DNA of 64,000 nt from contig JAJKIP010000030.1 of NCBI GenBank assembly GCA_021154405.1, positions 1 to 64,000 on the forward strand, given 5' to 3'. Below are positions 9,338 through 36,196 of this stretch, piece after piece (position 1 is the stretch's first letter; each line of letters opens with the position of its first letter). The DNA comes from Segetibacter sp. GTDB lineage: Bacteria; Bacteroidota; Bacteroidia; Chitinophagales; Chitinophagaceae. Under the pieces are notes generated by a model that had not been told where the DNA came from, did no database searches, and saw nothing but the letters and a program-made list of their open reading frames with translations. The translations under genes were made by a program, and so were the position numbers.

Positions 9338-9926
9338 ATTTCTTTCCTGAATACTTTTTCTCTGCCTCTTTTGCTTTTTGGAAATCAAGCACTACACCAT
9401 TAATGCAATAACGGAGATGCGTTGGAGGGGGACCATCATCAAATACATGCCCCAGGTGTGATTTACAGCGACCGCACTGAACTTCAGTTCTTGCCATGCC
9501 ATGGCTATTATCTGGAATATAAATGATGCTTCCTTTACTAATAGGTTCATAGAAGCTGGGCCATCCGCAGCCACTTTCAAACTTGGTATCGCTTTTAAAT
9601 AATGCATTTCCACAGACGGCGCAATAATAGGTTCCCGTTTCAAATGACTTCTCATATTTACTGGTCCAGGGTGCTTCTGTTCCTTTTTGCCTGGCTATAT
9701 AATAAACCTCTTCTGGCAATATCTTTTTCCACTCGGTTTCGGAAAGATTGACCTTGGAGGTATCAGTAGTAGAATAAACAGGATTCCCGTCTTTGGAATT
9801 GGCCTGTTTGTTTTCAGAGCTGTCCATTTTTTCAGGGTTGTTTTTTGAATTATTTGTTTGTGAATAGCTGCACTGTTGCAGGGCTGTTGCCAGAAGGCAC
9901 ACTAATATCAATCTGATTGTTTGCAT
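9336..9926 (-). CDS. msrB: Secreted peptide-methionine (R)-S-oxide reductase
   Basis: MsrB reduces methionine-R-sulfoxide in proteins. Residues 1-19 look like a signal peptide, possibly a lipoprotein signal (Cys19, though LQQC is a weak lipobox), followed by a Ser/Asn/Lys-rich spacer to about residue 50. The catalytic domain shows the zinc pairs CAVC and CGRC, ESGCGWPSF, GHVFDDGP and the active-site RYCIN Cys. At 196 residues it is longer than cytosolic MsrB because of the export signal. An envelope location implies repair of oxidised periplasmic or surface proteins. Confidence 0.95.
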   Translation of the reverse strand: MQTIRLILVCLLATALQQCSYSQTNNSKNNPEKMDSSENKQANSKDGNPVYSTTDTSKVNLSETEWKKILPEEVYYIARQKGTEAPWTSKYEKSFETGTYYCAVCGNALFKSDTKFESGCGWPSFYEPISKGSIIYIPDNSHGMARTEVQCGRCKSHLGHVFDDGPPPTHLRYCINGVVLDFQKAKEAEKKYSGKK

Positions 9927-15759: not shown

Positions 15760-16584
15760 ATGATGGAAAACAAAGAACTGGAACTGGATTTTTGTTTGTT
15801 GATTCCCTGTTATAACAACAAGGCAGGGTTGATCCATTCCCTTTCCTCCATAAAATATCCACCCAACCGTTTCCTCGTTTTGGTCGTAGATGATGGAAGT
15901 ACCGAACCAATTGAGGAGAAGGAAGTTTCAAACCAGTTACCAGTGAAAATAATTAGCCTTGAAAAAAACCAGGGGATTACCAATGCCCTGAACACAGGAT
16001 TATTGTGGATCAGGGATAATCTTTCCGTGAAATACATCGCCAGGCTGGATTGTGATGATACCTGCGACCCGGAAAGGTTTAATATCCAGGTCAGTTATAT
16101 GGACGCCCATCCTGAGGTGGCTCTGGCGGGAAGCTGGTGCCTGTTTGTAGGCAGGAATTCCAATGACAGGTATGTGTATAAAACACCAACTGAGGACAAA
16201 GACATCCGGCGAGCCATGTATTATCGAAATGTGTTTATGCATCCGACTGTCATTTTTAGGAAAGATGCCGCGATAAGGGTGGGATTATATCCTGAAAATT
16301 TTGAGCTGGCTGAGGATTATGCCTTATTCTGGAAGTTAATGAGTGACGGGCTAACGTTTGTTGATAGAAGGATATTAGTTACCACACGGATAGAAAAGAC
16401 CGGAATTTCTTTTAGAAATAGGGGTAAACAATTAATTGCTAGACAAAAAGTTGTAAATTACTATGGGAATAACCGGTTTCTTAAGGTTATATCAATTATC
16501 AGGTTAGGTATTCTCTTTTTAGTACCGAAACGATTACTTTTGCCACTGAAAATTCTTAAAGGCAGACAGTTGTGCAACGTTTGA
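15760..16584 (+). CDS. Family 2 glycosyltransferase
   Basis: GT-A fold transferase of 274 residues, predicted cytosolic and membrane-associated. Seen: LLIPCYNNKAGL at the N-terminus, VVDDGSTEP, the metal-binding LDCDDTCDPERF and the acceptor-side FELAEDYALFWKL. The basic, hydrophobic C-terminus (ISIIRLGILFLVPKRLLL) may contact the membrane. It is the first gene of the polysaccharide locus and lies 18 bases after the DNA glycosylase. Sugar and acceptor are not predictable. A 164-base gap follows. Confidence 0.9.
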   Translation: MMENKELELDFCLLIPCYNNKAGLIHSLSSIKYPPNRFLVLVVDDGSTEPIEEKEVSNQLPVKIISLEKNQGITNALNTGLLWIRDNLSVKYIARLDCDDTCDPERFNIQVSYMDAHPEVALAGSWCLFVGRNSNDRYVYKTPTEDKDIRRAMYYRNVFMHPTVIFRKDAAIRVGLYPENFELAEDYALFWKLMSDGLTFVDRRILVTTRIEKTGISFRNRGKQLIARQKVVNYYGNNRFLKVISIIRLGILFLVPKRLLLPLKILKGRQLCNV

Positions 16585-16748: not shown

Positions 16749-17879
16749 ATGATAATCGTCCATATAGTAGAACCATTTGCTGCTGGAATTGCGGTGTTCG
16801 TTAAATCACTTACTGAAGCCATGCCGGATGATATGCATATCATCGTTCATGGTGAAAGAAAAAAGGAAATGAGCGCCAGGGAAGTTAAAAAAAGCTTCCC
16901 TCGACAGAATGTGCGCTTTATCAAGTGGCGCTCAGCACAACGTTCTATTGACCCCCTCAAAGATTTATTGGCTTTAGCAGAACTCTATAAGATCTTGCGC
17001 AGATTGAAACGTAAGAACCTGGTTGATGCTGTTCATTTGCATTCTTCAAAAAGCGGTTTATTGGGCAGGGCGGCCTGCAAAATGGCTGGAGTCACTAATG
17101 TTTTCTACACGCCCAATGGTGCTTCATTCCTTTCAGCTCCGAATAGACTGGCCCGTTATTTCTATCAGCAACTGGAAAGAGTAGGTCATCGCCTGGGAGG
17201 AAATGTAGTTTGTTGCTCAGCGTCTGAACTCGAAGAGTTTGTTAAGTTGGGAATTAATGCCGGTTATATCAACAATGGCATTAACATCAGCCAGCAACAG
17301 AAATCAGCCATCAACATTAATGCCCGTGACAAGTTCAGGGTAGTAACCAGTGGCCGTATTGAAAAGCAGAAAAACCCCCGTCTCTTTAATGAGATCGCTA
17401 CCTACTTCGAGGACATGGAGCAGGTAGAATTTATCTGGATCGGTGATGGCACATACAAGAAATACTTTACTGCAAAAAATATTACTGTTACAGGATGGAT
17501 AGGAAATAAGGAAGTTCATGATCTGGTGGCTGCTTCCAATTTATACCTGTCTACTTCCCACTATGAAGGATTATCCTTTGCGGTGTTGGAAGCATTGGCA
17601 TTGAAGAAACCAGTATTGCTTAGCAATTGTACCGGCAATATTGATATTGTAAAGAAAGGCATCAATGGTGATTTGTTTACCAAGGCATCAGAAGCCAATG
17701 TAAAGATCCTGCAGTATTATAATAACCGGGAAATGCTGGATGTGATGGGGACCTTCTCCGCCGAGATTTGCCAGGCAGAGTTCAATGTAAAGGAAAATTT
17801 CAAAACTTATAGGGAATTATATGCCGGATCGTTGCAAAAGGTAATGGGCGGCAAAGTGAAATGGAATTTCGGATATTAA
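16749..17879 (+). CDS. Family 4 glycosyltransferase
   Basis: GT-B retaining-type transferase of 376 residues. Seen: IVHIVEPFAAGIAVFVKSL at the start, HLHSSKSGLLGRAA, NGASFLSAP, VTSGRIEKQKNP at the domain junction and the donor-site STSHYEGLSFAVLEALA (the EGLSFAVLEA pattern is the family E-x7-E motif). This architecture is typical of lipid-carrier sugar assembly. The gap before it (16585-16748) is AT-rich and shows no gene or clear promoter. The downstream coiled-coil gene begins near its stop. Confidence 0.93.
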   Translation: MIIVHIVEPFAAGIAVFVKSLTEAMPDDMHIIVHGERKKEMSAREVKKSFPRQNVRFIKWRSAQRSIDPLKDLLALAELYKILRRLKRKNLVDAVHLHSSKSGLLGRAACKMAGVTNVFYTPNGASFLSAPNRLARYFYQQLERVGHRLGGNVVCCSASELEEFVKLGINAGYINNGINISQQQKSAININARDKFRVVTSGRIEKQKNPRLFNEIATYFEDMEQVEFIWIGDGTYKKYFTAKNITVTGWIGNKEVHDLVAASNLYLSTSHYEGLSFAVLEALALKKPVLLSNCTGNIDIVKKGINGDLFTKASEANVKILQYYNNREMLDVMGTFSAEICQAEFNVKENFKTYRELYAGSLQKVMGGKVKWNFGY

Positions 17880-17893
17880 TAAAACCTTACTGC

Positions 17894-18277
17894 ATGAAGC
17901 ATTCCATATCGGTGAAATCACATTCCGTATCAGACTTGGACAAGATGGATGATTTCCAGCAATCGCTAGAGATGATTGAGCAAAAGCTGGATACTGAAAT
18001 TGCTGCGAAACAGAACACCATTGATCGACAGGAACAGGAAATTCAGCGTCTTCATGGACTGGTTGAGGAGAAGAACAAGATTATACTGGAGATCAACGGC
18101 AAGCTGGTAGAATGCATGCGAAATAGCGAAGGAAATCGTCAATTGATCAATAAACTGCTGAATGATATGTCACGGTTGCAGCAGGATATAGAATGGTACA
18201 AGAGAACATATGAGAACCGAAGTCTCCTGGGTACCTTAAGAGAAAAGCTTAAGAAAAATTTTACAAAAGGCAGGTGA
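17894..18277 (+). CDS. Small coiled-coil protein of the polysaccharide locus
   Basis: A 127-residue protein, almost all heptad-like coiled coil from about residue 20 to 105 (long runs of Glu, Lys, Gln and Leu). The tail has an aromatic and basic segment, IEWYKRTYENRSLLG, then an amphipathic Lys-rich helix that could contact membrane. I use ATG 17894; a longer open frame from 17861 overlaps the upstream gene. It has no catalytic motif. Its form resembles the coiled-coil parts fused to enzymes elsewhere in this locus (21779 and 31631), so it may be a free scaffold or length-control subunit; this is inference. Confidence 0.65.
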   Translation: MKHSISVKSHSVSDLDKMDDFQQSLEMIEQKLDTEIAAKQNTIDRQEQEIQRLHGLVEEKNKIILEINGKLVECMRNSEGNRQLINKLLNDMSRLQQDIEWYKRTYENRSLLGTLREKLKKNFTKGR

Positions 18278-18379: not shown

Positions 18380-19150
18380 ATGAAAGCAGTTCTACTGGCT
18401 GGTGGGCTGGGCACACGTATCTCTGAAGAAACAACTGTGAAGCCCAAGCCGATGATCGAAATTGGCTATAAGCCTATCTTATGGCATATCATGAAATCAT
18501 ACTCCACGTATGGCATCAATGAATTCATCATTTGTCTGGGTTATAAAGGATATGTCATCAAAGAATACTTTTCCAATTATTATCTCCATACGTCTGACGT
18601 AACTATTGACCTCACCACTAACCAGACACAGGTACATCAAAGCAAGGCTGAACCCTGGAAAATAACTTTAGTTGATACAGGTGAAGAAACAATGATAGGA
18701 GGCCGCATCAAACGTATCATTCCTTACGTAGAAGAGGATGAATATTTTTTTGTAACCTATGGTGATGGCGTGGGTGATGTTGATATAACAGCTACTGTTG
18801 ACCTTCATAAAAAAGAAAAAAGACTTGCTACTGTTACGGCTGTGCAGCCCCCTGGAAGATTTGGCGCAATAAGATATGAACAGAATAAGGTGTCCGGCTT
18901 TATGGAAAAACCGCAAGGTGATGGCGGATGGATCAATGGAGGCTTTTTTGTACTGTCCCCGAAAGTCAAGGATTATATAGATGGTGATGCAACAGTATGG
19001 GAAAAAGAGCCATTGGAAAACCTGGCAAAAGATAACGAGTTATCCGTTTATTTTCATAATGGCTTCTGGCATCCTATGGATACTCTCCGGGATAAAAAAT
19101 ATCTCGAAGATCTGTGGGACAAAGGAAAAGCTCCATGGAAAACATGGTAA
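18380..19150 (+). CDS. rfbF: Glucose-1-phosphate cytidylyltransferase
   Basis: Makes CDP-glucose from CTP and glucose-1-phosphate, the entry to CDP-linked deoxysugars. Seen: AGGLGTRISEETTVKPKPM (the nucleotide-binding loop, ending in the RfbF-type KPKPM), GYKGYVIKEYFSNYY, VTYGDGVGDVD and EKPQGDGGWINGGFFV. The 256-residue length equals the family. The usual next enzyme, CDP-glucose 4,6-dehydratase, is not recognisable next to it; instead two other SDR proteins and an RmlC-like epimerase follow. It sits 102 bases after the coiled-coil gene behind a promoter-like box. Confidence 0.95.
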   Translation: MKAVLLAGGLGTRISEETTVKPKPMIEIGYKPILWHIMKSYSTYGINEFIICLGYKGYVIKEYFSNYYLHTSDVTIDLTTNQTQVHQSKAEPWKITLVDTGEETMIGGRIKRIIPYVEEDEYFFVTYGDGVGDVDITATVDLHKKEKRLATVTAVQPPGRFGAIRYEQNKVSGFMEKPQGDGGWINGGFFVLSPKVKDYIDGDATVWEKEPLENLAKDNELSVYFHNGFWHPMDTLRDKKYLEDLWDKGKAPWKTW

Positions 19151-19182
19151 CTCTCGTTCTATAATTAGAATCAATATAACCG

Positions 19183-20229
19183 ATGAAAATTTTAATTACA
19201 GGAAACCTGGGATATATTGGTCCTGTTCTAACCAAACACCTGAAAAAAAGACATCCCGATTATTCTATTACGGGTATTGACAGTGCATTCTTTGCGCACT
19301 GCCTCACTGACGCAGTTTATTCCCCCGATATTTACACCGATGTACAGTATTTTAAAGATGTAAGGAACATTGAGGAAAGCTTTTTGAAAGGCTTTGATGC
19401 CATTATTCATCTGGCCGCTGTTTCAAATGACCCGATGGGCAATAAATTTGAACAGGTGACGGATGAGATCAATCACAAGGCAAGTGTGGACCTGGCAATT
19501 AAGGCATCCGCGGCAGGAGTAAAGAAATTTGTATTTGCCTCCAGTTGCAGTATATATGGTTTTGCAGAAGGAGGAGCCAAAACGGAAAAGGATGCACTGA
19601 ATCCTCTCACTGCTTATGCCAAATCAAAAGTGAATACAGAGATTGGTTTGGAAAAAGTATCTGTGCAGTCAGATATGGTCATTACTGCTCTTCGGTTTGC
19701 TACAGCCTGTGGAATGTCTGACAGAATTCGTCTTGATCTTGTTCTGAATGATTTCATCGCTTCAGCACTTGCTACTGGTAAGATAACCGTTCTCAGTGAC
19801 GGATCTCCCTGGCGGCCATTGATTGATGTAAAGGATATGTCACGTGCAATGGAATGGGCGCTGTTGAGAAGCAGGGATGCAGGAAAGTTTTTAGCGATAA
19901 ATATCGGTCATAACGATTTTAACTACCAGGTAAGAGATATTGCAGAAACAGTTTCATCCATCATCCCGGGTACTGAGATTTCAATCAATAAAAATGCTCC
20001 ACCAGATAAGCGCTCCTACCGGGTTGATTTTTCATTATTCAATCAATTGGCCCCGGAGTATATTCCCATTACCAATCTCGTGCAATCTGCCAAAGAAATA
20101 AGGGATGGCTTACAGCACATGCAATTCAATGACGCCAATTTCAGAGAATCACAATTAATACGCCTGAAGGTGCTGGAAAAACATATGGCCACCAACAAGA
20201 TGAACAATAACCTGGAATGGGTTTATTAA
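19183..20229 (+). CDS. NAD-dependent sugar epimerase/dehydratase (extended SDR)
   Basis: Extended short-chain dehydrogenase of 348 residues with Rossmann motif TGNLGYIG, the IIHLAAVSNDP segment, the Ser-containing strand FASSCSIYG and the catalytic YAKSK. Such enzymes act on nucleotide-sugars as epimerases, dehydratases or reductases. The context (rfbF before, RmlC-like after) points to a CDP-sugar substrate. It does not show the TGHTGFKG signature of CDP-glucose 4,6-dehydratase (RfbG), so assigning it that step would be a guess. The next gene starts 12 bases later. Confidence 0.9.
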   Translation: MKILITGNLGYIGPVLTKHLKKRHPDYSITGIDSAFFAHCLTDAVYSPDIYTDVQYFKDVRNIEESFLKGFDAIIHLAAVSNDPMGNKFEQVTDEINHKASVDLAIKASAAGVKKFVFASSCSIYGFAEGGAKTEKDALNPLTAYAKSKVNTEIGLEKVSVQSDMVITALRFATACGMSDRIRLDLVLNDFIASALATGKITVLSDGSPWRPLIDVKDMSRAMEWALLRSRDAGKFLAINIGHNDFNYQVRDIAETVSSIIPGTEISINKNAPPDKRSYRVDFSLFNQLAPEYIPITNLVQSAKEIRDGLQHMQFNDANFRESQLIRLKVLEKHMATNKMNNNLEWVY

Positions 20230-20241
20230 AATTAAGCTGCA

Positions 20242-20808
20242 ATGAAATTCACCGAAACACCATTGAAAGGCGCCTTCCTGATCGATCTTGAAAAGAAAGG
20301 GGATCACAGGGGGTTCTTTGCAAGATTCTTTTGCGAGAATGAATATAGGGCGCATAACCTCGTCACTCATTTTGTACAGATCAATAATTCGCTTACCGCT
20401 ACAAAAGGAACGCTTCGGGGCATGCACTATCAATTAGAGCCATCTGGAGAAGTGAAGGTGGTGCGGTGCATCAGGGGTTCTCTATTTGATATGATCCTTG
20501 ATCTGCGCCCTGATTCACCCACATTCGGGAAATCATTTGGTGCAGAGCTAAATGCTGAAAACAGGTCCATGATGTATGTACCGAAAGGATTCGCGCATGG
20601 TTTTGTGACCCTGCAGGATGATACAGAAGCCCTCTACCTCGTAAGTTCCTTCTATGCCCCGGATCTTGAAAGAGGTATTCGTTATAATGACCCCAGGTTT
20701 GGCATCAACTGGCCAATACAACCTGTTGAGATTTCAGATAAGGACAAAAACTGGCCGGATTTTGATCCAAAGTATCATGGTGTTGATACCCTAAAGAACC
20801 TGATATGA
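20242..20808 (+). CDS. rfbC: RmlC-like sugar 3,5-epimerase
   Basis: Cupin-fold epimerase of 188 residues that inverts C3/C5 of a 4-keto-6-deoxy nucleotide sugar. The residues expected for RmlC are visible: GTLRGMHYQ (Arg and catalytic His), EVKVVRC (Lys), DMILDLRPDSPTFG and the later YLVSSFYAPDLERG with the catalytic-type Tyr. No RmlA, RmlB or RmlD is in the window, so the natural substrate may be CDP-linked and not dTDP-linked; this is inference. Its TGA overlaps the next ATG (ATGA), indicating translational coupling. Confidence 0.88.
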   Translation: MKFTETPLKGAFLIDLEKKGDHRGFFARFFCENEYRAHNLVTHFVQINNSLTATKGTLRGMHYQLEPSGEVKVVRCIRGSLFDMILDLRPDSPTFGKSFGAELNAENRSMMYVPKGFAHGFVTLQDDTEALYLVSSFYAPDLERGIRYNDPRFGINWPIQPVEISDKDKNWPDFDPKYHGVDTLKNLI

Positions 20809-21740
20809 AGATCCTAATGACAGGAGCCAGCTCCTTCACCGGATATTGGTTCGCAAAAACCTTAGCGGAAAAAGGGCATCAGCTTACTCTGACGTTCACC
20901 AAATCCAGAATTGCTTATTCAGGTCTAAGAGAGCAGAGAATTGAATTGCTCGAAAAATTTCCTGCCATTTCCTGTTTATGGAATTATTCTTTTGGGACAG
21001 AAGAATTTCTCGATCTGCTTGATCAAAAATTTGAGGCGGTATGTCATCACGGCGCTTTTGTAGAGGATTATAAAAGCCTGTCTTTTGATGTAGGCCGTGC
21101 GGTTGCCGAAAATGCGAATCATTGCCAGGAATTCATGGTCCGTACAAAACAGGCAGGCGTGAATAAAATTGTATTGACAGGGAGCGTATTTGAAGCAAAT
21201 GAAGGAAAGGGCTCAGATCCGCTCGTTGCTTTTTCACCATACGGATTATCTAAAACTTTTACCTGGGAAACTTTCCGCTATTGGGCGTGGAAACAGGATA
21301 TCACGCTGACCAAGTTTGTTATTCCCAACCCTTTTGGCCCATACGAAGAGCCAAGATTTTGTAATTACCTTGTGCAAAACTGGGCAAAAGGCATCACTCC
21401 ATCCGTGAAAACACCGGATTATGTACGTGATAATATTCATGTAGACCTGCTTGCCTGTGCATATGCATTGGCAGTGGAGAAGGAAAGCAAAGGGATTACG
21501 AGTATCAATCCGGGAGGTTATGCTGCCACCCAAAGAGAATTCACACTGAAATTTGCCCTTGAAATTGGAAAGAGACTGGGTTTCGCCCATGAGGTAAACT
21601 TTTATGTGCAGGAGAATTTTGACGAACCTTTAGCCAGAATAAATTTATTCCCTGCTGTTGAAATGTGCGGCAACTGGAATGAAGAAAAAGCCTGGGATCA
21701 GTTAGCTGTCTATTATAGACATATGCTGTCATTAAAATAA
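20805..21740 (+). CDS. NAD(P)-dependent nucleotide-sugar reductase/epimerase (SDR)
   Basis: SDR protein of 311 residues. Seen: TGASSFTGYWFAKTLA (Rossmann loop), LTGSVFEANEG, the catalytic-type YGLSKTF and FVIPNPFGPYEEPRF. It is likely the finishing 4-ketoreductase or an epimerase for the sugar made by the two preceding enzymes. The start overlaps rfbC by four bases, so production is coupled. The Ser-Tyr-Lys triad has YGLSK, normal for the family. Exact stereochemistry is unknown. Confidence 0.85.
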   Translation: MKILMTGASSFTGYWFAKTLAEKGHQLTLTFTKSRIAYSGLREQRIELLEKFPAISCLWNYSFGTEEFLDLLDQKFEAVCHHGAFVEDYKSLSFDVGRAVAENANHCQEFMVRTKQAGVNKIVLTGSVFEANEGKGSDPLVAFSPYGLSKTFTWETFRYWAWKQDITLTKFVIPNPFGPYEEPRFCNYLVQNWAKGITPSVKTPDYVRDNIHVDLLACAYALAVEKESKGITSINPGGYAATQREFTLKFALEIGKRLGFAHEVNFYVQENFDEPLARINLFPAVEMCGNWNEEKAWDQLAVYYRHMLSLK

Positions 21741-21778: not shown

Positions 21779-24700
21779 ATGAAATTTACAGGAGAGTTCT
21801 TTGTTCCTGACGAGAAGTACAGGAAATTGTCTGAAGACAGAGAGCTTGCAATTGAGCACCTTCAGCGGTATAACACAATCCTGCCATTGGTAGCTAATAA
21901 AGATGTTTTGGATATTGCATCCGGTGAAGGATATGGCTCCAATATACTTGCTTCAGGAGCTGCTTCAGTTATTGGAGTAGATATAAATGAGGAACTTGTA
22001 GCTCATGCTACAGAAAAATATGTAAAAGATAATCTCAGTTTCAAGGCCGGCAATGTTGTAGCTATGCCTCTTGAAGATGCCTGTGTAGATGTTGTTGTGA
22101 GTTTTGAAACACTGGAGCACGTAAATGACGAAGCGCAGCAAAAATTTCTTCAGGAAATACGCCGGGTATTAAAAAAGGAAGGCATACTTATTATTTCAAC
22201 ACCCAATAAGGCTAATTATACCGACCGGTTCAATCATATCAATGAATTTCACGTTAAGGAACTGGATGAGGCTGCCTTTGTCTCCCTGCTTAAACAGAAT
22301 TTTCCCCGGGTTGAGTTGTTTAACCAGGGACAGGAAATTGTGAGTATGGTATTCAATAAGGAAAAATACATTGAGCAATCACCTGTGCCTTCCTTACCTA
22401 TTGTTAAAGACCATTTCCGGTTGCAGGGTAAATATCTTCTGGCTGTTTGTGGCAAATCAGAAAAAAAGCAATTGCCTGATATTTCAAGCGTGGTGGTTGA
22501 AGGAAATAAATCTTTCTTTGATCTAACGGAAAGGATTGTTCAGTTACAGGATGAAGTAGAGCAACTGGGTGCCTGGGGACGGAGATCTGCCGCTGAGGTT
22601 GAACAGATGCAAGGGTTAATAGCGGAGCAAAACAAGGCGAGAGAGAATAACGAAAAAATTATTAATGAGAAGGAAAAAGTTATTGCTGAAAAGAATGCGG
22701 TGATCAAACAGTTTGATGAACTGATGGTATTGCGGGAAAAATTACACCAGGATAGTGAAAGCGTGATAAGGGTAAAGAACGATATTATTACACAGTTAGA
22801 GCAATTGCTTATCCTCAGGGACAAAATGTTCCAGGATACGGAAAAAGCAAATAAGGAAAACCAGACAAAGTTAAAGGAGTTTCAGAAAAAAATAGATGAA
22901 GAAAAGACTATTACTGAAAATCTTTCCAACAGGAACCTGAAATTAAACCAGGAAAAGGATAATCTGCAGGCAGAAAAAAGCAGAATGCAGGCTGAACTGA
23001 ATGTAGAAATCCGGCAGATACAGATTAAATCGGAAGAAGATATCAGAAAGAAGGAAAAAGAAATTGCCGAGTTGTCAGAGGAAATATCAAAATTAAGCAG
23101 GGAGGTACAGGAACAGAGCAATAATTCTTATCGGATTGAGACTCAAAAATTATTATTGCAGCAAACCCTGGATCATATCTATGGTTCCGAAGGATGGAAA
23201 ATGTTATCCATTTATTACAAAATAAAAGGGAAACTGCTTCCTGAAGAAAGCGGCAGGTATAAAACATTGAAGAAATGGTTCCAGGTTCTGAAGAGAAATA
23301 AGAACCCGGAAAAGGTATTTACTGTGGTTGCCGAACAGGAAACAAAGCCTGTGGTAGCTCAACCCGTTATTGTGCCGGAAGAGCATATGAAATGGCCAGT
23401 TGTTTTCCCGGTATTTGATAAGATCGAAGTGTCAATCGTAATGCCGGCCTATAATAATTGGGAGTTTACGAGAAATTGCCTGCTATCAATACATAAATAC
23501 AACGATGGGGTTCCTTTTGAGATAATTGTTGGAGATAATGTTTCTACTGATGATACACAGAAACTGCCTCAATACTTTACTAATGTAAATTATATACGTA
23601 ATCCAGAGAACCTGGGATACATAAAAAATGTGAACAATGCTGCATCTAAAGCAAAAGGTAAATATATTTTAACGCTGAATAATGACACTACTGTAACTGA
23701 AGGATGGCTGATCAACCTTGTGAAGGTGATGGAAGCTGATCCTAAAGCAGGACTTGTAGGTTCAAAGCTGGTATATCCAGATGGTAGCCTGCAGGAAGCC
23801 GGTGGTATAGTCTGGAAAGATGCCAGTGGCTGGAACTATGGAAGAGGTTCAGACCCGGATTTACCAGAGTATAATTATGTAAAGGAGGCTGATTATATCA
23901 GCGGCGCCAGTAATCTTGTGCGCCGGGAACTTTGGGAAAAGCTGCAGGGATTGGATCTCCGTTATGTTCCCGCCTATTTTGATGATTCTGACCTCGCCTT
24001 CGGTATCCGTAGACTTGGTTATAAAGTGATTTATCAACCCCTTTCTGTAGTTGTCCATTATGAAGGCTTGACCCATGGAACCAATACAACCGAAGGCACC
24101 AAGCAATATCAAATGCTCAATCTGGAAAAATTCAAACAGAAATGGAAAGAAGAGTTGAAGCATGAACAGTTCCCAAACGGTGAACATGTTTTCGTTGCAC
24201 GTGACCGTAGCCGGTCCAAAAAGACAATACTCGTTGTAGATCACTATGTCCCTCAATTTGATAAAGACGCTGGGTCAAGAACTGTATTCCAGTACCTGAA
24301 GCTTTTTGTCTCCCTGGATTTTAATGTAAAATTCATTGGAGATAATTTTTACCGGCATGAGCCTTATACTACTGTTCTGCAACAAATGGGTATTGAAGTG
24401 CTCTACGGCCCATGGTACTGGAATCACTGGCAGAAATGGATAAAGAATAATCATGATGAATTTGACTATGTATTATTGAATCGTCCGCATATTTCCGTTA
24501 AATACATAGATTTCATTAAAGAAAATACTAAGGCCAGGATATTATACTATGGACATGACCTGCATTATGTGCGGATGGCAAAGCAGTACGAGGTAGAAAA
24601 TAAAAAAGAGTTATTGGATGAAGCTGCCAGGTGGAAAGATGTTGAAACGTCTTTATTTAGTAAAGCAGATGTGGTGCTGGCGCCCAGCAAAGAAGAAAGT

Positions 24701-25360
24701 GACCTTATAAAGGAGCTTGGTGTAAATAACAGGGTCTATCCGATTAAGCCATACATTTTTGATAGAATACCTGAGGCGCTTACTGATTTCTCCAGTAAAA
24801 AAGATATATTATTCATTGGGGGGTTCACCCATGTACCCAACGTTGATGCGGTAATCTGGTTTGTAAAAGAAGTATGGCCGCTTGTGAAGCAGGAGGTGAA
24901 AGGTGCGCGTTTTATTATTGCGGGATCAAATCCACCGGCCGAAGTTACATCTCTTGCAGCATCTGATATTGATGTGCTGGGCTATGTTTCAGATGAAGCG
25001 TTGACAAAATTATATGCTGGAATAAAACTGGTAGTGATTCCACTGAGGTACGGCGCAGGTGTAAAGGGAAAGACCGTGGAGGCAATGTACAATGGGGTAC
25101 CGATCGTATCTACTTCATTTGGGACAGAAGGTCTGCCAGGAAATGTTTCATTCCTGGCTCCCAAAGATAATCCTGCAGATTTTGCGAATGAGGTGACAAG
25201 GTTATATGTAGCAACTGATGAAGAATTGGTCACATTTAGCCAAAACGAAGTAAAATATATCTATGAGCACTTCTATGTGGAAACGGTAAAAGCCGAATTT
25301 ATGGGTATTCTGGATGAGTTGACCGGCAGGAAAAAGAAGGAAGGTGAATTGATCAAATAA
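21779..25360 (+). CDS. Methyltransferase / coiled-coil / GT2 / GT4 fusion protein (1193 residues)
   Basis: Four-part protein. Residues about 40-200: class I SAM methyltransferase with VLDIASGEGYGS and DVVVSFETLEHV. About 235-460: long Lys/Glu-rich coiled coil. About 465-520: GSEGWKMLSIYYKIKGKLL linker with amphipathic helix. About 548-790: GT2 domain (VSIVMPAYNNWEF, NNDTTVTEGWL, FDDSDLAFGIRR). About 815-1180: GT4 domain (ILVVDHYVPQFDKDAGSR, GAGVKGKTVEAMYNGVP). It probably adds sugars and methylates the growing glycan on the cytosolic face. A methyltransferase joined to a coiled coil recalls chain-terminating ruler enzymes such as WbdD, but the two glycosyltransferase domains differ from that protein. 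It is by far the largest gene of the locus. Confidence 0.9.
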   Translation: MKFTGEFFVPDEKYRKLSEDRELAIEHLQRYNTILPLVANKDVLDIASGEGYGSNILASGAASVIGVDINEELVAHATEKYVKDNLSFKAGNVVAMPLEDACVDVVVSFETLEHVNDEAQQKFLQEIRRVLKKEGILIISTPNKANYTDRFNHINEFHVKELDEAAFVSLLKQNFPRVELFNQGQEIVSMVFNKEKYIEQSPVPSLPIVKDHFRLQGKYLLAVCGKSEKKQLPDISSVVVEGNKSFFDLTERIVQLQDEVEQLGAWGRRSAAEVEQMQGLIAEQNKARENNEKIINEKEKVIAEKNAVIKQFDELMVLREKLHQDSESVIRVKNDIITQLEQLLILRDKMFQDTEKANKENQTKLKEFQKKIDEEKTITENLSNRNLKLNQEKDNLQAEKSRMQAELNVEIRQIQIKSEEDIRKKEKEIAELSEEISKLSREVQEQSNNSYRIETQKLLLQQTLDHIYGSEGWKMLSIYYKIKGKLLPEESGRYKTLKKWFQVLKRNKNPEKVFTVVAEQETKPVVAQPVIVPEEHMKWPVVFPVFDKIEVSIVMPAYNNWEFTRNCLLSIHKYNDGVPFEIIVGDNVSTDDTQKLPQYFTNVNYIRNPENLGYIKNVNNAASKAKGKYILTLNNDTTVTEGWLINLVKVMEADPKAGLVGSKLVYPDGSLQEAGGIVWKDASGWNYGRGSDPDLPEYNYVKEADYISGASNLVRRELWEKLQGLDLRYVPAYFDDSDLAFGIRRLGYKVIYQPLSVVVHYEGLTHGTNTTEGTKQYQMLNLEKFKQKWKEELKHEQFPNGEHVFVARDRSRSKKTILVVDHYVPQFDKDAGSRTVFQYLKLFVSLDFNVKFIGDNFYRHEPYTTVLQQMGIEVLYGPWYWNHWQKWIKNNHDEFDYVLLNRPHISVKYIDFIKENTKARILYYGHDLHYVRMAKQYEVENKKELLDEAARWKDVETSLFSKADVVLAPSKEESDLIKELGVNNRVYPIKPYIFDRIPEALTDFSSKKDILFIGGFTHVPNVDAVIWFVKEVWPLVKQEVKGARFIIAGSNPPAEVTSLAASDIDVLGYVSDEALTKLYAGIKLVVIPLRYGAGVKGKTVEAMYNGVPIVSTSFGTEGLPGNVSFLAPKDNPADFANEVTRLYVATDEELVTFSQNEVKYIYEHFYVETVKAEFMGILDELTGRKKKEGELIK

Positions 25361-25386: not shown

Positions 25387-26247
25387 ATGAGTATAAACCA
25401 GTGTGCTGTCTGTAATTCAGAGGATACAAAACTATTTATGAGCGTAAGAGATGTTTCTTATCAGGAATGTAATTCCTGCGAGGTAATCTTTGCATCCCCT
25501 GACGTATTGGCAGGAATTGACGCTGGCAAAGGTATAGTTGAATATAATGAGATCTATTGGAAAGAAGAGCTCTATGCGGCCAGGGGACGCTCCTGGGGAA
25601 CATCACTAGCACGAGTGGCAGAAGTATTTCTCTATGCAAGGCTTCCAATCTCTAAATTTCTTGATATCGGGTCTGGACCCGGCTATCTTTTGGATTCCCT
25701 GCAATACCAATTACCCTCCTCCCAGGTATTTTATGCTAATGAATTATTCCCGCCGGCAGACGAATATTGTACAACCAATCAAAACTATCTGAGAGGCCCG
25801 TTATCAAGTTTTGATATTTCTTTCGATGCGGGTTGCTGTATTGAGGTGATTGAACATCTTACTCCCTCCATGGTGAAACAATTGTTCACCGATCTTGCAC
25901 AAAAATCAAGGCCGAACAGTATATACATTTTTAACACAGGGTTGTCTCACTATATCAAAAATGAAGACATTGGCTATCTCGATCCCTATAAACGCGGTCA
26001 CATAATGGGATGGTCAATTAAAGGCCTGCAGACGGTTGTAGACTCAATAGGATTTCAAATCCTGCCTATTCCGGGAAAATCCTGGGCATTTATAGCTGAG
26101 TACAGGCCTGATCATGAATTTAGGGAAGACCAGATTGATGCCAGAATATGGTATGCTTTTCCCGAAAATGTAAATACCCTAAAAGATAAAAAAACCGGTG
26201 ATCTTATGTATATACTTGGATTGGATACGGTCCGTGCCTATAGTTAA
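25387..26247 (+). CDS. Class I SAM methyltransferase with N-terminal zinc-ribbon
   Basis: A 286-residue protein beginning with a four-Cys ribbon (CAVCNSEDT and ECNSCEVIF), followed by a methyltransferase domain with the SAM loop LDIGSGPGYLLDSL and motif GCCIEVIEHLTP. Such ribbon-plus-methyltransferase proteins are common in polysaccharide clusters as sugar O- or C-methyltransferases. It lies 26 bases after the large fusion gene. The target is not predictable. The 119-base gap after it contains a weak GACTG/CAGTC hairpin at 26307-26320 and no gene. Confidence 0.85.
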   Translation: MSINQCAVCNSEDTKLFMSVRDVSYQECNSCEVIFASPDVLAGIDAGKGIVEYNEIYWKEELYAARGRSWGTSLARVAEVFLYARLPISKFLDIGSGPGYLLDSLQYQLPSSQVFYANELFPPADEYCTTNQNYLRGPLSSFDISFDAGCCIEVIEHLTPSMVKQLFTDLAQKSRPNSIYIFNTGLSHYIKNEDIGYLDPYKRGHIMGWSIKGLQTVVDSIGFQILPIPGKSWAFIAEYRPDHEFREDQIDARIWYAFPENVNTLKDKKTGDLMYILGLDTVRAYS

Positions 26248-29019: not shown

Positions 29020-29988
29020 ATGAAAATAGCTGTTCTCATACCCTGTTACAATGAAGCGATGACCATTCAACAGGTCATTAATGGATTCAGGAAGGAAGTT
29101 CCAGGAGCGGATATTTATGTATATGATAATAACTCCAGGGACAACACCTACGAAATGGCCAAATCAGCAAACGTAAATGTAGTAAGGGAATCTCGTCAGG
29201 GAAAAGGAAATGTTGTTCGATCAATGCTCAAGAATATCGATAGTGATATTTATATTCTTGTAGATGGTGATGATACTTATCCTGCGGAGTCCATCCATGA
29301 ACTGTTGAAGCCGGTTCTGGCAAATGAGGCAGATATTGTTATTGGTGATAGAATTTCCAATGGGCGTTATTCCGACGAAAACAAAAGGGCATTCCATAGC
29401 TTTGGAAATAATCTTGTCAGAAGACTCATTAATACCTTATTTAAATCCAGACTTAAGGATATAATGAGCGGCTACAGGATAATGAACAGGCATTTTGCAA
29501 AAACTTTTCCTGTCTTAAGCAAGGGATTTGAAATTGAAACTGAAATGAGTATTTACTCTCTGCATAATAATTTCCGCATAATTGAGGTCCCAATTGATTA
29601 TCGAGACAGGCCCACGGGAAGTGTTTCAAAATTGAATACTTACCGCGATGGCTTCAAAGTAGTAAAAATCATATTCTGGCTTTTTAAAGATTATAAGCCT
29701 TTGATCTTTTTCTCCTGGTCCAGCCTCATCCTGGTTCTTGCCGGCTTTGCCATAGGTACGCCTGTTATTCTTGAATTCCTGAGAACAGGGTTTATTCTTC
29801 GTGTACCTTCCGCTATATTATCGGCCGCACTTGAAATAATCGGTATTTTATTGTTTGCCTGCGGATTGATCCTCGATACGACAGTTAAACATCAGCGCTC
29901 GCTAAATGAACAGATGTCAAATCTTTTCATAACATTAGATGAAAACTGGAAACGGGAGCATTCAAATAGAAAAAATGAAAGTATTTAG
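29020..29988 (+). CDS. DPM1-like GT2 with C-terminal membrane segments
   Basis: A 322-residue glycosyltransferase of the polyprenyl-phosphate sugar synthase type. Seen: LIPCYNEAMTIQQVI, YVYDNNSRDNT, ILVDGDDTYPAES (metal-binding DGDD), KDIMSGYRIMNR and RPTGSVSKLNTYRDG. Two C-terminal hydrophobic helices (about 232-292) anchor it. It most likely loads a hexose onto polyprenyl phosphate for a periplasmic GT-C enzyme; the adjacent 708-residue membrane protein is the natural partner (inference). It overlaps the next methyltransferase gene by 14 bases. Confidence 0.88.
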   Translation: MKIAVLIPCYNEAMTIQQVINGFRKEVPGADIYVYDNNSRDNTYEMAKSANVNVVRESRQGKGNVVRSMLKNIDSDIYILVDGDDTYPAESIHELLKPVLANEADIVIGDRISNGRYSDENKRAFHSFGNNLVRRLINTLFKSRLKDIMSGYRIMNRHFAKTFPVLSKGFEIETEMSIYSLHNNFRIIEVPIDYRDRPTGSVSKLNTYRDGFKVVKIIFWLFKDYKPLIFFSWSSLILVLAGFAIGTPVILEFLRTGFILRVPSAILSAALEIIGILLFACGLILDTTVKHQRSLNEQMSNLFITLDENWKREHSNRKNESI

Positions 29989-30881: not shown

Positions 30882-31634
30882 ATGAAGGATACCACTTGTT
30901 CAATTTTTTTCCATAATTATTATGGTCAACACGAGAAGTGGATGAAGCTTTTTTCTGAGAAAATGAATGTTCCCTTTAACCTTTTCTATAATATAGTAGG
31001 AGATAGCATTTATACTCTTGATGAAAAAAGCCCTGAAGCTGTAACTTTTGATTCCTCCCAATCCAGGGTCCTGCAAAACCTTATTGTCTGCAAATCTTCC
31101 AACCAGGGTAAAGACCTGGGAGGTAAAATGATTTTGATGGATGCGTACTCAAATGCAGGCTTGGCAAGTGAATATATAATATTCCTGCAGGACAAAAAAA
31201 GCCCGTATAAGATTCAGAACGAAGAATGGAAAAGAAAGTTGTTTCGGATCATTGATCCAGTATTTATTCAGGAGGCTGTAACCACCTTTCAAAACAATAA
31301 GAATATCGGAATTGTAGCAGCTGCAGAAAGCATTCTTAATGAATGGGATCATTCAGATCAATCTTACAAAAGCAATAATAAGCGCCAGTTGTTGAATTTG
31401 CAAGACCAGTATAAAATATATACAAAAGACCATCTGTATATTGCCGGGACTATGTTCTGGGCTAGAGCAGTAACTTTGGAAAACTTTTTTGCCAAAAATA
31501 ACCCACTTGATATACGTTCCAGCCTTGAAAAAGGCAATGTGATGGATGAAAATAGTGGAAGCAATACACACGCCTGGGAGCGATTACTAAGCTGGCTGAT
31601 TACGTCTCAGGGCTATGGGATAAAAGGATTATGA
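30882..31634 (+). CDS. RgpF-like glycan synthesis protein
   Basis: A 250-residue protein resembling the rhamnan-synthesis F (RgpF) family. Seen: IFFHNYYGQHEKWM, VCKSSNQGKDLGGKMI (the asparagine-glycine-x-aspartate pattern of the family), IIFLQDKKSP, AGTMFWARAVTL and HAWERLLSW. Such proteins are found in rhamnose-rich polysaccharide loci and are thought to take part in polymer assembly. The stop overlaps the next ATG by four bases (ATGA), implying coupling with the WbsX-like gene. Confidence 0.75.
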   Translation: MKDTTCSIFFHNYYGQHEKWMKLFSEKMNVPFNLFYNIVGDSIYTLDEKSPEAVTFDSSQSRVLQNLIVCKSSNQGKDLGGKMILMDAYSNAGLASEYIIFLQDKKSPYKIQNEEWKRKLFRIIDPVFIQEAVTTFQNNKNIGIVAAAESILNEWDHSDQSYKSNNKRQLLNLQDQYKIYTKDHLYIAGTMFWARAVTLENFFAKNNPLDIRSSLEKGNVMDENSGSNTHAWERLLSWLITSQGYGIKGL

Positions 31635-32482
31635 TTAACCGGATTTTTTTTGTTGCAGATGAAACAAGTTTATTGGGGAACCAGCTTCCTGATGAGGAAA
31701 ATGTGTTTTTCAGCGTTCGTGTGGATCCGCTGGATGAAATAAAGCTGAAAGAGATTTATAAATTCACTATCGATAACCCCCGCCTGCCAATAGCTTTAAC
31801 ATTATCCCTGACAGGGAAACTGCCACATGAAACCATACGGCTACTAACCTCATTTTTTTTCCTTGATTCCTCTCTTCGGATTGATAACAAACCCGTGATT
31901 AATATAATGGGGGATAATCCCGAAATATTATCCGGGATCGAAATTCATCTTAAAGATTATTGCAAATTGCAGGGATTAGATGAAGTAATTGTAAATACTA
32001 TTCCTGGTATACTGAACCAGAGTCTAAACTATTCTACAGCACGATCACCGGAAGAAGCTATTCGATTGTACAGGGAATTTTTAAATCTTAGACATTTTGG
32101 TACAGGTACTCTTTTTACTCTTTTGACAGCAAATGATAATCTGCATGATCTGTTAAAGTCCCTGGCTTCCGAAGATTTAGGGCTTGATAAAGAATTTACT
32201 GGATTATCTGATCTTATCGTTAAATGCAGGCTTCTTGAAAAGGAAACAACTTATCTTAAAAGAAAACTCCTATTAAACGAAAAGGAACTGGCAAATCAGA
32301 AACAATATCAGGATATTTTAAGGTCACAGCATTCAACCAGGCAATTGCAGGATTACTATAATAATGAGTATGAGATATTGCCGAAATGGTATAAGCAAAT
32401 GGGTCATGTATTGAAAGTGATTATGGGTAAAAGAACACTGAAATCATTGTTTAGGGACGACGTTAAAAAATATAGGGATTGA
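31631..32482 (+). CDS. WbsX-like partial domain with coiled-coil tail
   Basis: A 283-residue protein. Residues about 45-120 (LTSFFFLDSSLRIDNKPVINI) resemble the segment of WbsX-type proteins in which a sugar-transferase-like barrel reads a conserved Lys-Pro-Val strand, but much of the usual WbsX length is missing, so this is a reduced form or only a distant relative. Residues about 200-275 form a charged helical tail with YNNEYEILPKWYKQMGH and a basic end. It is coupled to the RgpF-like gene upstream (ATGA) and to the GT fusion downstream (TTGA). The function is not established. Confidence 0.6.
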   Translation: MINRIFFVADETSLLGNQLPDEENVFFSVRVDPLDEIKLKEIYKFTIDNPRLPIALTLSLTGKLPHETIRLLTSFFFLDSSLRIDNKPVINIMGDNPEILSGIEIHLKDYCKLQGLDEVIVNTIPGILNQSLNYSTARSPEEAIRLYREFLNLRHFGTGTLFTLLTANDNLHDLLKSLASEDLGLDKEFTGLSDLIVKCRLLEKETTYLKRKLLLNEKELANQKQYQDILRSQHSTRQLQDYYNNEYEILPKWYKQMGHVLKVIMGKRTLKSLFRDDVKKYRD

Positions 32483-34650
32483 AGTACTGGCTATTGACAA
32501 CGGAATATCCTCCATTTTTTGGAGGTGGAATAGGAACTTATTCTGCTATTACCGCAAGAATGATGGCTGCCAAAGGTCATTCTGTTTCCGTATTTGTGAA
32601 TGATGCTTCGGTCAATAATATTGCTATTGAGGAAAGAGAGGGGATACAGATAATCCGGTTCAATACCTCGCGTACAAACTCTTCTTCTTTTCTGGGACAT
32701 ACCACCAATATCAGCTATGAATTCGCACATATTGTAAAACATTTTATTGAAAAAGAAGGGAAGCCTGATTGTATCGAAGCCCAGGAATACCTGGGAATCG
32801 CTTACTATCTTTTGCAGTATAAGCTAATGCTGTATGATTGGTGTAAAGACATTCCTGTTTTGATAACCATGCACTCTCCCTCTTTCCTCTATATGGAGTA
32901 CAATCATGTGCCCATGTACCGTTATCCCAATTTCTGGATCTGTGAAATGGAGCGGTTTTGTTTGCAGGCAGCAGACCATGTTATTTCACCCAGCCAGTTT
33001 ATGATACGTGAACTGGACAAAAGATTCAAATTAAGTAATAAGAACGTTTCAATTATACCCAACCCATTTGAAGGAAAGGCATATGGCAGGTTTGAAGCAG
33101 GTAATTCAGTACCTGATCAGATTGTGTTTTATGGAAAGCTCACTGCACAAAAAGGCGCCTTTCGTCTGATGGCCTATTTCAAACAATTATGGGACGAGGG
33201 ATTTGACAGACCGCTGTACCTGCTGGGAGGCCAGGATATAGTCTATCATCCTGAAGGCAGAACAATGGGTGATATCATCAGACAGCGATTTAAAAAATAT
33301 ATTGAAAGTGGATTGCTGAAAATGGAGGCGCGTGTAAAACCGTCAGATATTGGTCAGCGGCTTTCCAAGGCTGAACTCGTTATAATTCCCAGTGATAATG
33401 ACAACCTTCCTTATGTGGCATTTGAGATGATGGCACTTGGAAGGATTGTGCTTGTTTCAAAGCAGGGTGGTCATTCTGAAGTGGTTGAAAACGGTTTGGA
33501 TGGTTTCATCTTTGATCATAATGAACCGCAAACCTTTTTTGACCAGTTGAAAAATATCTTACAATTGAATCGGGAAGAAAGAAAGAAAATTGCCTCTGCA
33601 GCAATAAAGAAGGTAAATGAAAACTATAATCCGGATATAACTTATGCTAAAAAAATCCCGGTAATAGAAAATCTGATTCGGTCACACCAAAACCTTCGCA
33701 CCGTTTTCCCATTTGTACACCACAAACCGGCTCCACCACTCGTGGATCAGATTTCTTCTCGTAAGGGTCTATTATCTGTAGTTGTTCCATATTACAACAT
33801 GGGGGCTTATATCGATGAAACCATCAACTCTATTTTAAAAACTGACTATGAAGAACGAGAGGTCATCATCATCAATGATGGAAGTACGGACGATATAAGT
33901 ATTGAAAAATTGAATACTTATCGGAACAGACAGGACATTAAAATTATAGATGTTCCCAATGGTGGCCTTGCAAAATCCCGCAACCTGGGAGCGCAATCTG
34001 CCAATGGTGAGTTCCTTGCCTTTCTGGATGCTGATGATACAGTACGGCCGGAATATTATTCTCGCGCCATTTCCGTATTTAACCAGTACTCCAATGTTTA
34101 TTTTGCTGGTTGCTGGGTAAGATATTTTGGAAATTCAAATAATAGCTGGCCTGCCTTTCAGCCAGAACCTCCCATCATCCTTTATCACAATCTCGTAAAT
34201 TCAAGTAGCCTGGTTTATAAGCGCGCGGCTTTTTTGGCTGCAGGAAAAAATGATTCAACCATGAGTTTTCAGGGGCTTGAGGATTATGATAGCGTTATTT
34301 CCCTGTTAGCTGCCGGCTTTGGTGGTATTGCCATACCCGAGGCCCTGTTTAACTATAGAATACGTCCGGACTCTATGATAAGGGCGATCTCCACATCCAA
34401 AAAATTATATTTATACCAACATATTAGCGAGAAGCATAGACAGTTTTACGCTACTTTTGCCGCCGATGTATCTAACCTGCTCAATGCCAATGGTCCAGGC
34501 ATATCGCAGGACAACCCATCCCTTGACTACCACCTGGCAGACCGGCTTCCTTTCGGAGGGAAAATGGCAGGAAAGATGGTCGGGTTGATCAAGCGTAATC
34601 GTTTTATGAAAAACATAGCTTACAAGGTCTATAAGCTGCTCAAAAAATAA
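32479..34650 (+). CDS. GT4-GT2 fusion glycosyltransferase (723 residues)
   Basis: Two transferases in one chain. Residues 1-400: GT4 type with WLLTTEYPPFFGGGIGTYS, MHSPSFLYME, YGKLTAQKGAF and IPSDNDNLPYVAFEMMALG. Residues about 430-650: GT2 type with LSVVVPYYNMGAYIDETI, IIINDGSTDD, FLDADDTVRPEY and FQGLEDYDSVISLL. It starts at TTG (32479), which overlaps the preceding TGA as TTGA. Two domains suggest successive addition of two sugars. Predicted cytosolic, membrane-associated. Confidence 0.9.
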   Translation: MKYWLLTTEYPPFFGGGIGTYSAITARMMAAKGHSVSVFVNDASVNNIAIEEREGIQIIRFNTSRTNSSSFLGHTTNISYEFAHIVKHFIEKEGKPDCIEAQEYLGIAYYLLQYKLMLYDWCKDIPVLITMHSPSFLYMEYNHVPMYRYPNFWICEMERFCLQAADHVISPSQFMIRELDKRFKLSNKNVSIIPNPFEGKAYGRFEAGNSVPDQIVFYGKLTAQKGAFRLMAYFKQLWDEGFDRPLYLLGGQDIVYHPEGRTMGDIIRQRFKKYIESGLLKMEARVKPSDIGQRLSKAELVIIPSDNDNLPYVAFEMMALGRIVLVSKQGGHSEVVENGLDGFIFDHNEPQTFFDQLKNILQLNREERKKIASAAIKKVNENYNPDITYAKKIPVIENLIRSHQNLRTVFPFVHHKPAPPLVDQISSRKGLLSVVVPYYNMGAYIDETINSILKTDYEEREVIIINDGSTDDISIEKLNTYRNRQDIKIIDVPNGGLAKSRNLGAQSANGEFLAFLDADDTVRPEYYSRAISVFNQYSNVYFAGCWVRYFGNSNNSWPAFQPEPPIILYHNLVNSSSLVYKRAAFLAAGKNDSTMSFQGLEDYDSVISLLAAGFGGIAIPEALFNYRIRPDSMIRAISTSKKLYLYQHISEKHRQFYATFAADVSNLLNANGPGISQDNPSLDYHLADRLPFGGKMAGKMVGLIKRNRFMKNIAYKVYKLLKK

Positions 34651-34656: not shown

Positions 34657-35454
34657 ATGCTTATTAGAATCGTGACAGATTGGGTAAAGCGTTCCAATAA
34701 ACTGGAACGGTTGTGGTTGATGGCCAAGATTGAATTCAAACTTAGGTACTATGAAAACAAGCTGGGCCTTCTTTGGGCACTGATCAAACCAGTTTCCGAC
34801 ATAGTCATCTACTATGTGGCTTTTGAGCTAATCATGAAGCAGGGTGTACCCAATTTTATTTCCTTTCTTTTTATCGGTCTTATCATGTGGAATTTCTTTG
34901 TTGAATGCACAACAGGAACTATTCAGATTCTCAATACTAAAAAATATTTGTATGAGTTTACAAATATGAATAAGATTGAGATATATGTCTCCACACTTAT
35001 CAGTAATTGTATAGGGTTTTTTTTCAATTTACTGATGTTTACCCTGTACTTTCACATTTTTGAAAAAGGGGTGGGCTCGTATACATGGAATGCACTTTAT
35101 TTTATACCCATATTTCTGAACCTGTTGATCATTGCGCTAGCCTTTTCGCTGATCCTTTCGAATATTTATATTATTGCGAAAGATATTACCCAGATTTGGA
35201 TTGTTATTACGGGGCTTGGATTCTGGCTTTCACCCATTTTATTTAAACTTGATAAATTCAGGGAAGCTTTGCCTGGCCTGGAATTCATTAATCCACTTTC
35301 AGGCGTTATCATCAATGCAAGAAATGTATTACTGTACCATAAAGCACCTGACTGGACACTGTTCTTTTTTGGCTGGCTTTATGCAGGAATTTTGCTCGTA
35401 ATAGGCTTGCTGCTATTAAACAGACTGGGATCTAAAGCTGCTGAAAAACTATGA
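34657..35454 (+). CDS. Wzm-type ABC-2 permease for polysaccharide export
   Basis: A 265-residue membrane protein with six hydrophobic segments. The pattern is that of ABC-2 permeases that export O-antigen or teichoic-type polymers: an N-terminal amphipathic KIEFKLRYYENKLGLLWALIK, then the first membrane helix, and a FINPLSGVIINARN segment. It lies 6 bases after the GT fusion gene and 4 bases before its ATP-binding partner. It would carry the undecaprenyl-linked glycan across the inner membrane. Confidence 0.9.
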   Translation: MLIRIVTDWVKRSNKLERLWLMAKIEFKLRYYENKLGLLWALIKPVSDIVIYYVAFELIMKQGVPNFISFLFIGLIMWNFFVECTTGTIQILNTKKYLYEFTNMNKIEIYVSTLISNCIGFFFNLLMFTLYFHIFEKGVGSYTWNALYFIPIFLNLLIIALAFSLILSNIYIIAKDITQIWIVITGLGFWLSPILFKLDKFREALPGLEFINPLSGVIINARNVLLYHKAPDWTLFFFGWLYAGILLVIGLLLLNRLGSKAAEKL

Positions 35455-35458: not shown

Positions 35459-36196
35459 ATGAAAAACCAGGAATTCGCCATCGTTGCCAAAAACATAAGC
35501 AAAACCTTTCATATAACAGAGGATAGCCATAATAGTGTCAAGCAGCGTCTGTTTAATCTGTTTAATTCGCCAAAGAAGAAAAGAGTTGAAGCTATCAAGC
35601 CTTTATCGCTCGAGATCAGAAGTGGCGAATGCATAGGCCTGTTAGGGCGGAATGGATGCGGAAAGTCAACGCTCGTCAAATTACTGGCTGGCGTTTATCC
35701 TGTTGATGGGGGAACTATGAAGATCAATGGTTCTACCATGCTTATGAACCTTGGGGTTGGTATGAGCCATGAATTGACCGCCAGAGAGAATATCTATGTT
35801 TCTGGTTCCGTGCTTGGACTTAAGATCAAAGAGATTGATGCTATATTTGACCAGATCATTGACTTTGCAGAACTGAGAGAATTTGTGGATTCAAAGATCA
35901 AATATTTTTCTTCTGGTATGGTGGCAAGACTTGGTTTTTCCATTGCCGTTAACGCCGGAGCCGATATCATGTTTCTCGATGAAATATTTGCCGTTGGCGA
36001 TATGAAATTCCAGGAAAAAGCCATCAAAGTATTTGAAAGTTCCTGGATCGAAGGCAAGACGGTTATATTGGTAAGCCATAGCATGGACGTTGTGAGAAAA
36101 TATTGTAAGCGTGCAGCTTTTATGAAGAATGGAGAACTGATATATATTGGGGAAACTGAAAAAGCAATTGAGCTTTACATGGAAGACAACCATTAA
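35459..36196 (+). CDS. Wzt-type ABC exporter ATP-binding protein, short form
   Basis: A 245-residue ABC ATPase with Walker A GLLGRNGCGKSTL, signature FSSGMVARLGF, Walker B IMFLDEIFAVGD and the switch His in VSHSMD. It pairs with the permease. It lacks the C-terminal beta-sandwich that in Wzt proteins binds the modified end of the glycan, so export here is probably not gated by that route. The stop overlaps the last four bases of the opposite-strand ligase gene. Confidence 0.93.
   Translation: MKNQEFAIVAKNISKTFHITEDSHNSVKQRLFNLFNSPKKKRVEAIKPLSLEIRSGECIGLLGRNGCGKSTLVKLLAGVYPVDGGTMKINGSTMLMNLGVGMSHELTARENIYVSGSVLGLKIKEIDAIFDQIIDFAELREFVDSKIKYFSSGMVARLGFSIAVNAGADIMFLDEIFAVGDMKFQEKAIKVFESSWIEGKTVILVSHSMDVVRKYCKRAAFMKNGELIYIGETEKAIELYMEDNH

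What the first reader, a model, noticed from the sequence alone, without database searches (positions are those of the whole stretch)
21779..25360. Methyltransferase/coiled-coil/GT2/GT4 fusion may be a chain-length and end-capping enzyme
Seen: one protein holds a SAM methyltransferase, about 220 residues of coiled coil and two glycosyltransferase domains, in a locus with an ABC-2 exporter. Established: in ABC-dependent O-antigens, WbdD-type proteins use a methyltransferase plus coiled-coil rod to end chains at a set length. Inference: this protein combines elongation and length-set termination in one chain. WbdD has no glycosyltransferase domains, so this would be a variant not described to my knowledge.
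Basis: partly seen in the sequence, partly recalled or inferred. Interest (0 to 1): 0.6.

Follow-up and report, generated by a model that had tools for sequence, protein, structure and literature searches.

The report
One-chain sugar-polymer maker with ruler
One bacterial protein joins a methyl-capping enzyme, a rod about 30 nm long and two sugar-adding enzymes, probably to build a surface sugar chain and stop it at a set length; the design is already known, but relatives have rods of very different length, some built from near-identical repeats, and the exporter lacks the part that normally checks the cap.

Summary
Window 21779-25360 encodes 1193 aa: a class I SAM methyltransferase (about 1-225), a real coiled coil (245-466; heptad period 3.50, z = 7), a short basic linker, GT2 (549-790) and GT4 (812-1180), upstream of Wzm/Wzt. 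AlphaFold gives the methyltransferase core pLDDT about 95 and one helix, 274-479.

The claim that the fusion is undescribed does not hold. Klebsiella O7 ORF6 (methyltransferase-kinase, coiled coil, two GT2), O12 WbbB and WsaE already combine termination and polymerisation in one chain. The likely job, polymerase plus methyl terminator with a rod as ruler, is plausible but unproven. One hallmark fails: Wzt is 245 aa without the cap-reading domain, none is found in the genome (83% complete), and a syntenic locus elsewhere has the same short Wzt.

New here: orthologs keep methyltransferase and GTs (46-59% identity) while the rod runs from 115 to 297 residues between fixed anchors. Several related rods are near-perfect in-frame DNA tandem arrays (42 bp x 7.7, 54 bp x 9.0, 63 bp x 5.1, 138 bp x 2.2); the window rod holds a diverged 28-residue duplication. 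Rod length thus changes easily in evolution, so natural variants can test the ruler model.

The parts
21779..25360 (+). methyltransferase - coiled coil - GT2 - GT4 protein, 1193 aa
21779..22453 (+). class I SAM methyltransferase domain, aa 1-225
   Evidence: Pfam; AlphaFold pLDDT about 95 in the core; structural neighbours incl. CgnL 7pd7 Z 19.6, rmsd 2.8 over 184 residues
22511..23185 (+). coiled-coil rod, aa 245-469 (predicted continuous helix 274-479)
   Evidence: heptad period 3.50, z 7.1
22670..22837 (+). two diverged tandem copies of a 28-residue (4-heptad) unit, aa 298-325 and 326-353
   Evidence: 13 of 28 identical at offset 28; best of 500 shuffles was 12
23174..23302 (+). basic linker after the rod with conserved SEGWK motif, aa 466-508; possible membrane contact
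   Evidence: 55-58% identity in three orthologs against 21-32% for the rod; hydrophobic moment not exceptional
23423..24148 (+). GT2 glycosyltransferase domain, aa 549-790
   Evidence: Pfam
24212..25318 (+). GT4 glycosyltransferase domain, aa 812-1180
   Evidence: Pfam
15760..16584 (+). GT2 enzyme, kept in syntenic loci
16749..17879 (+). GT4 enzyme, kept in syntenic loci (58-62%)
17861..18277 (+). small protein of coiled-coil appearance, kept in syntenic loci (38-46%)
   Evidence: coiled coil judged by eye from sequence
18380..21740 (+). sugar nucleotide genes: glucose-1-phosphate cytidylyltransferase (TIGR02623), SDR, 3,5-epimerase (rmlC type), SDR
25387..26247 (+). methyltransferase
29020..29988 (+). 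GT2 enzyme with predicted membrane tail
   Evidence: tail read from sequence
30882..31634 (+). RgpF-like protein, kept in syntenic loci (41-43%)
31631..32482 (+). 283 aa protein with helical C-terminal tail, kept in syntenic loci
32479..34650 (+). GT4-GT2 enzyme, 55-57% in syntenic loci
34657..35454 (+). Wzm-type ABC-2 permease
35459..36196 (+). Wzt-type ATPase, 245 aa, no C-terminal cap-reading domain
   Evidence: 80% identical in L066
36193..37482 (-). O-antigen ligase type protein (Wzy_C), kept beside Wzt in L066 (44%)

Best explanation
A single-chain polymerase-terminator for a surface glycan, probably an O-antigen, made in the cytoplasm and exported by Wzm/Wzt. GT2 and GT4 extend a lipid-linked chain near the membrane. 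The methyltransferase, held about 30 nm away by the coiled-coil rod, O-methylates the non-reducing end once the chain is long enough to reach it, and this stops growth; rod length sets modal chain length. Shown: domains, order, rod, synteny, rod length variation. Inferred: membrane tethering, terminal methylation, termination, length setting. How the exporter selects finished chains without a cap-reading domain is open; it may be non-selective.
For: [quoted passage not shown] The rod is real. The cluster is syntenic with L066, including Wzm, Wzt and ligase. Rod length varies (115, 122, 207, 297) while the catalytic modules stay at 46-59% identity, as expected of a tunable ruler. The same methyltransferase family, with a short coiled-coil-like tail, stands alone directly beside Wzm and a Wzt with cap-reading domain in Rhizobium (L174), and is fused to GT2-GT4 near such a Wzt in Allorhizobium (L054).
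Against: Wzt lacks the cap-reading domain found in all characterised terminated systems; none in this genome or the Rufibacter genome. Some relatives lie away from any annotated ABC exporter in the flanks read (L052, L053; L171). GT2-GT4 also occurs without methyltransferase (L027, L056). The same methyltransferase family occurs without a rod (L175). [quoted passage not shown]
Confidence: 0.5

Rival explanations
1. Modular synthase without length control: the methyltransferase methylates sugars within or at the end of the glycan as decoration, the rod is an oligomerisation and spacing scaffold, and length is set by the balance of synthesis and export, as usual for short Wzt transporters.
For: Short Wzt without cap-reading domain, kept in L066. 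Relatives away from exporters. GT2-GT4 combines with TPR, RgpF-like and repeat domains in other genomes. At least three further methyltransferases in the cluster.
Against: A rod between cap enzyme and polymerase is the stated marker of the termination strategy (PMC11231755). Rod length diverges in units that keep helical phase.
Confidence: 0.35
2. Scaffold: the rod with the small coiled-coil protein (17861-18277) and the helical-tail protein (31631-32482) assembles the glycosyltransferases into one membrane complex; its length matters little.
For: Both partner proteins are kept in three syntenic loci.
Against: Tested only by conservation; does not explain the methyltransferase at the far end.
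Confidence: 0.1

Closest known systems
Klebsiella pneumoniae O7 ORF6 (PMC11231755)
   Same: N-terminal methyltransferase, coiled coil, two C-terminal GT modules in one chain; ABC exporter cluster
   Different: O7 ORF6 has a kinase and an Ig-like domain between methyltransferase and rod and two GT2 modules; here no kinase, and GT2 plus GT4. Sequences were not compared
Klebsiella O12 / Raoultella WbbB
   Same: terminator, coiled coil and two polymerase GTs in one chain
   Different: terminator is a Kdo transferase, not a methyltransferase; its Wzt reads the cap
WsaE of Geobacillus stearothermophilus
   Same: N-terminal capping methyltransferase plus two GT domains; ABC exporter; no kinase described
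   Different: S-layer glycan; no coiled-coil ruler reported in the passages read; sequence not available here
WbdD of E. coli O9/O9a
   Same: methyltransferase at the tip of a coiled-coil rod
   Different: has a kinase, no GT domains, works with separate WbdA; its Wzt is 431 aa with Wzt_C

Membership tests
WbdD (methyltransferase-kinase terminator) | N-terminal class I methyltransferase | tested here: met
   profile match to E. coli HS WbdD over 89 columns, probability 94.9, fold level only
WbdD (methyltransferase-kinase terminator) | kinase domain between methyltransferase and rod | tested here: not met
   no Pfam kinase in P0001; the same search finds APH/Pkinase in E. coli HS WbdD. No folded domain between about aa 230 and 274 in the model
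WbdD (methyltransferase-kinase terminator) | long coiled coil | tested here: met
WbdD (methyltransferase-kinase terminator) | membrane-associated amphipathic helix after the rod | tested here: inconclusive
   conserved basic linker, but hydrophobic moment not exceptional
single-chain polymerase-terminator (O7 ORF6, O12 WbbB) | order terminator, coiled coil, two GT modules in one chain | tested here: met
   same order in L031, L066, L051, L052
single-chain polymerase-terminator (O7 ORF6, O12 WbbB) | Wzt carries a C-terminal cap-reading domain | tested here: not met
   Wzt is 245 aa; Wzt_C absent from own genome, 83% complete; control E. coli HS Wzt scores 89 bits
single-chain polymerase-terminator (O7 ORF6, O12 WbbB) | terminating and polymerising activity in vitro | not testable with these tools
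   needs biochemistry
WsaE | sequence relationship of methyltransferase and GT domains to WsaE | not tested
   WsaE sequence not retrieved

The most novel reading that the evidence does not exclude
A family of one-chain glycan polymerase-terminators whose ruler is encoded by expandable in-frame tandem repeats, so that surface glycan length can shift stepwise by repeat gain or loss, and whose terminated chains are exported without a cap-reading Wzt domain.
Probability: 0.2. Interest if true: 0.75.

Novelty: new variant of a known kind. Interest (0 to 1): 0.42.

Why it matters
The ruler model rests on a few enterobacterial systems with engineered rods. Here nature offers orthologs in one syntenic cluster with rods of about 115, 122, 207 and 297 residues and conserved catalytic modules, so the predicted order of glycan length can be tested directly. 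Near-perfect tandem arrays in the rods suggest an easy genetic route to change glycan length. A terminator beside a short Wzt would show that capping and cap-dependent export can be uncoupled.

Tried and rejected
Bactofilin domain in the L051 spacer (Pfam 42.7 bits): rejected as an artefact of an 18-residue tandem coiled-coil repeat. Full-length AlphaFold run: too shallow an alignment. Genome-contig scan gave one relative only. Search for repeat-number variants of the L051 gene in plasmids: only itself. Search of 50 species of the L066 genus: only itself, so strain-level copy number change could not be tested. Two Aminobacter relatives have the same rod and no tandem arrays, so no variation there. 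Profile search of 395 phylum genomes found mostly GT2-GT4 proteins with other N-terminal parts. E. coli HS WbdD has no strong tandem array (best score 50). WbdD was not among the 50 listed structural neighbours, which excludes nothing. Literature searches for tandem-repeat rulers found nothing, in an open-access library only.

Full report
OBSERVATION. The ORF at 21779-25360 encodes 1193 aa. Pfam finds a SAM methyltransferase, a GT2 and a GT4 domain. The stretch between methyltransferase and GT2 is a coiled coil: hydrophobic periodicity peaks at exactly 3.50 residues, z = 7.1 against shuffles, with 1.4% Pro+Gly; the catalytic domains show no such signal. A model of residues 1-520 with 45 aligned sequences has a confident methyltransferase core and one continuous helix, 274-479, about 31 nm if straight. 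WbdD is quoted at about 20 nm (PMC5082667).

CONTEXT. The gene lies in a one-directional cluster from 15760 to 36196: GTs, a small coiled-coil-like protein, sugar nucleotide genes headed by glucose-1-phosphate cytidylyltransferase, further methyltransferases, an RgpF-like protein, a GT4-GT2 fusion, then Wzm and Wzt; an O-antigen ligase type gene follows on the other strand. Locus L066 in another genome has the same cluster including Wzm (60%), Wzt (80%) and the ligase (44%); L065 and L031 share much of it.

PRIOR KNOWLEDGE. The design is known. K. pneumoniae O7 ORF6 is a methyltransferase-kinase, coiled coil and two GT2 modules in one chain, with both activities shown in vitro; O12 WbbB is a Kdo transferase, coiled coil and two GTs (PMC11231755). 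WsaE joins a capping methyltransferase and two rhamnosyltransferases (PMC3898925, PMC2943079).

WHAT DIFFERS. There is no kinase, with E. coli HS WbdD as positive control. Wzt is 245 aa and lacks the cap-reading Wzt_C domain; the control Wzt has it. No Wzt_C is found in the own genome (83% complete) or the Rufibacter genome. Since all characterised terminated systems have that domain, this is the strongest evidence against a textbook terminator. In contrast, relatives in Allorhizobium and Rhizobium do sit near a Wzt with Wzt_C, so the methyltransferase family can occur in the textbook setting.

RODS. Between the conserved anchors LGAWG and SEGWK the rod is 207 residues in the window, 122 in L031, 115 in L065 and 297 in L066, while methyltransferase identity is 46-47%, GT2 55-57% and GT4 52-59%; rod identity is 21-32%. 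L031, L065 and L066 differ from each other by whole heptads (7, 175, 182 residues); the window rod does not fit this series, and four sequences are few. L066 carries a 42-bp unit (two heptads) 7.7 times at 98%, L051 a 54-bp unit 9.0 times at 99%, L053 a 63-bp unit (three heptads) 5.1 times at 94%, L055 a 138-bp unit 2.2 times at 98%. L053 has no Pfam methyltransferase and L055 is frame-broken in its GT part. In nine loci (244 kb) four of five strong tandem arrays fall in rods that make up 2.8% of the bases (binomial P about 3e-6). This test was set up after seeing the arrays, and coiled coils are repetitive by nature, so it is descriptive. The window rod has a diverged 28-residue duplication (13 of 28 identical; best of 500 shuffles 12). 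Rods of L031, L052, L054 and L065 have no such arrays.

MECHANISM. I think it most likely that the protein polymerises and caps one glycan, with the rod as ruler (0.5). Domains, order and rod variation are shown; capping, termination and length control are inferred. The main rival is a modular synthase in which methylation is decoration and length is set by export (0.35), favoured by the short Wzt and by relatives away from exporters.

VERDICT. A new variant of a known kind, of moderate interest. The useful new lead is the natural series of rod lengths and the tandem-repeat rods, not the fusion itself. Whether repeat number varies within a species could not be tested.

Noticed in passing
L066 10174-10498; L051 6620-7105; L053 6495-6816; L055 13016-13321: Near-perfect in-frame tandem DNA arrays inside the coiled-coil spacers of related proteins.
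   Followed up: partly
window 17861-18277: Small protein of coiled-coil appearance; relatives lie just upstream of the fusion gene in L031, L065 and L066.
   Followed up: partly
window 31631-32482: 283 aa protein without Pfam match, with a helical tail containing LPKWYKQMGHVLKVIMGKR; conserved in syntenic loci.
   Followed up: no
window 26892-29018: 708 aa membrane protein, weak match to LIC_10190 family (34.7 bits, below cut-off); relative in L056 at 34%.
   Followed up: no
L174 7070-8137: Stand-alone methyltransferase with short helical tail directly after Wzm and a Wzt with Wzt_C: a WbdD-like layout without kinase.
   Followed up: partly
L051, protein residues 271-372 of the gene at 5798-9427: Pfam Bactofilin match is a false positive caused by the 18-residue coiled-coil repeat.
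   Followed up: yes
window 18380-21740: Cytidylyltransferase followed by SDR, 3,5-epimerase and SDR suggests a CDP-activated deoxysugar; no orthologs of these four genes were found in the syntenic stretches read.
   Followed up: no
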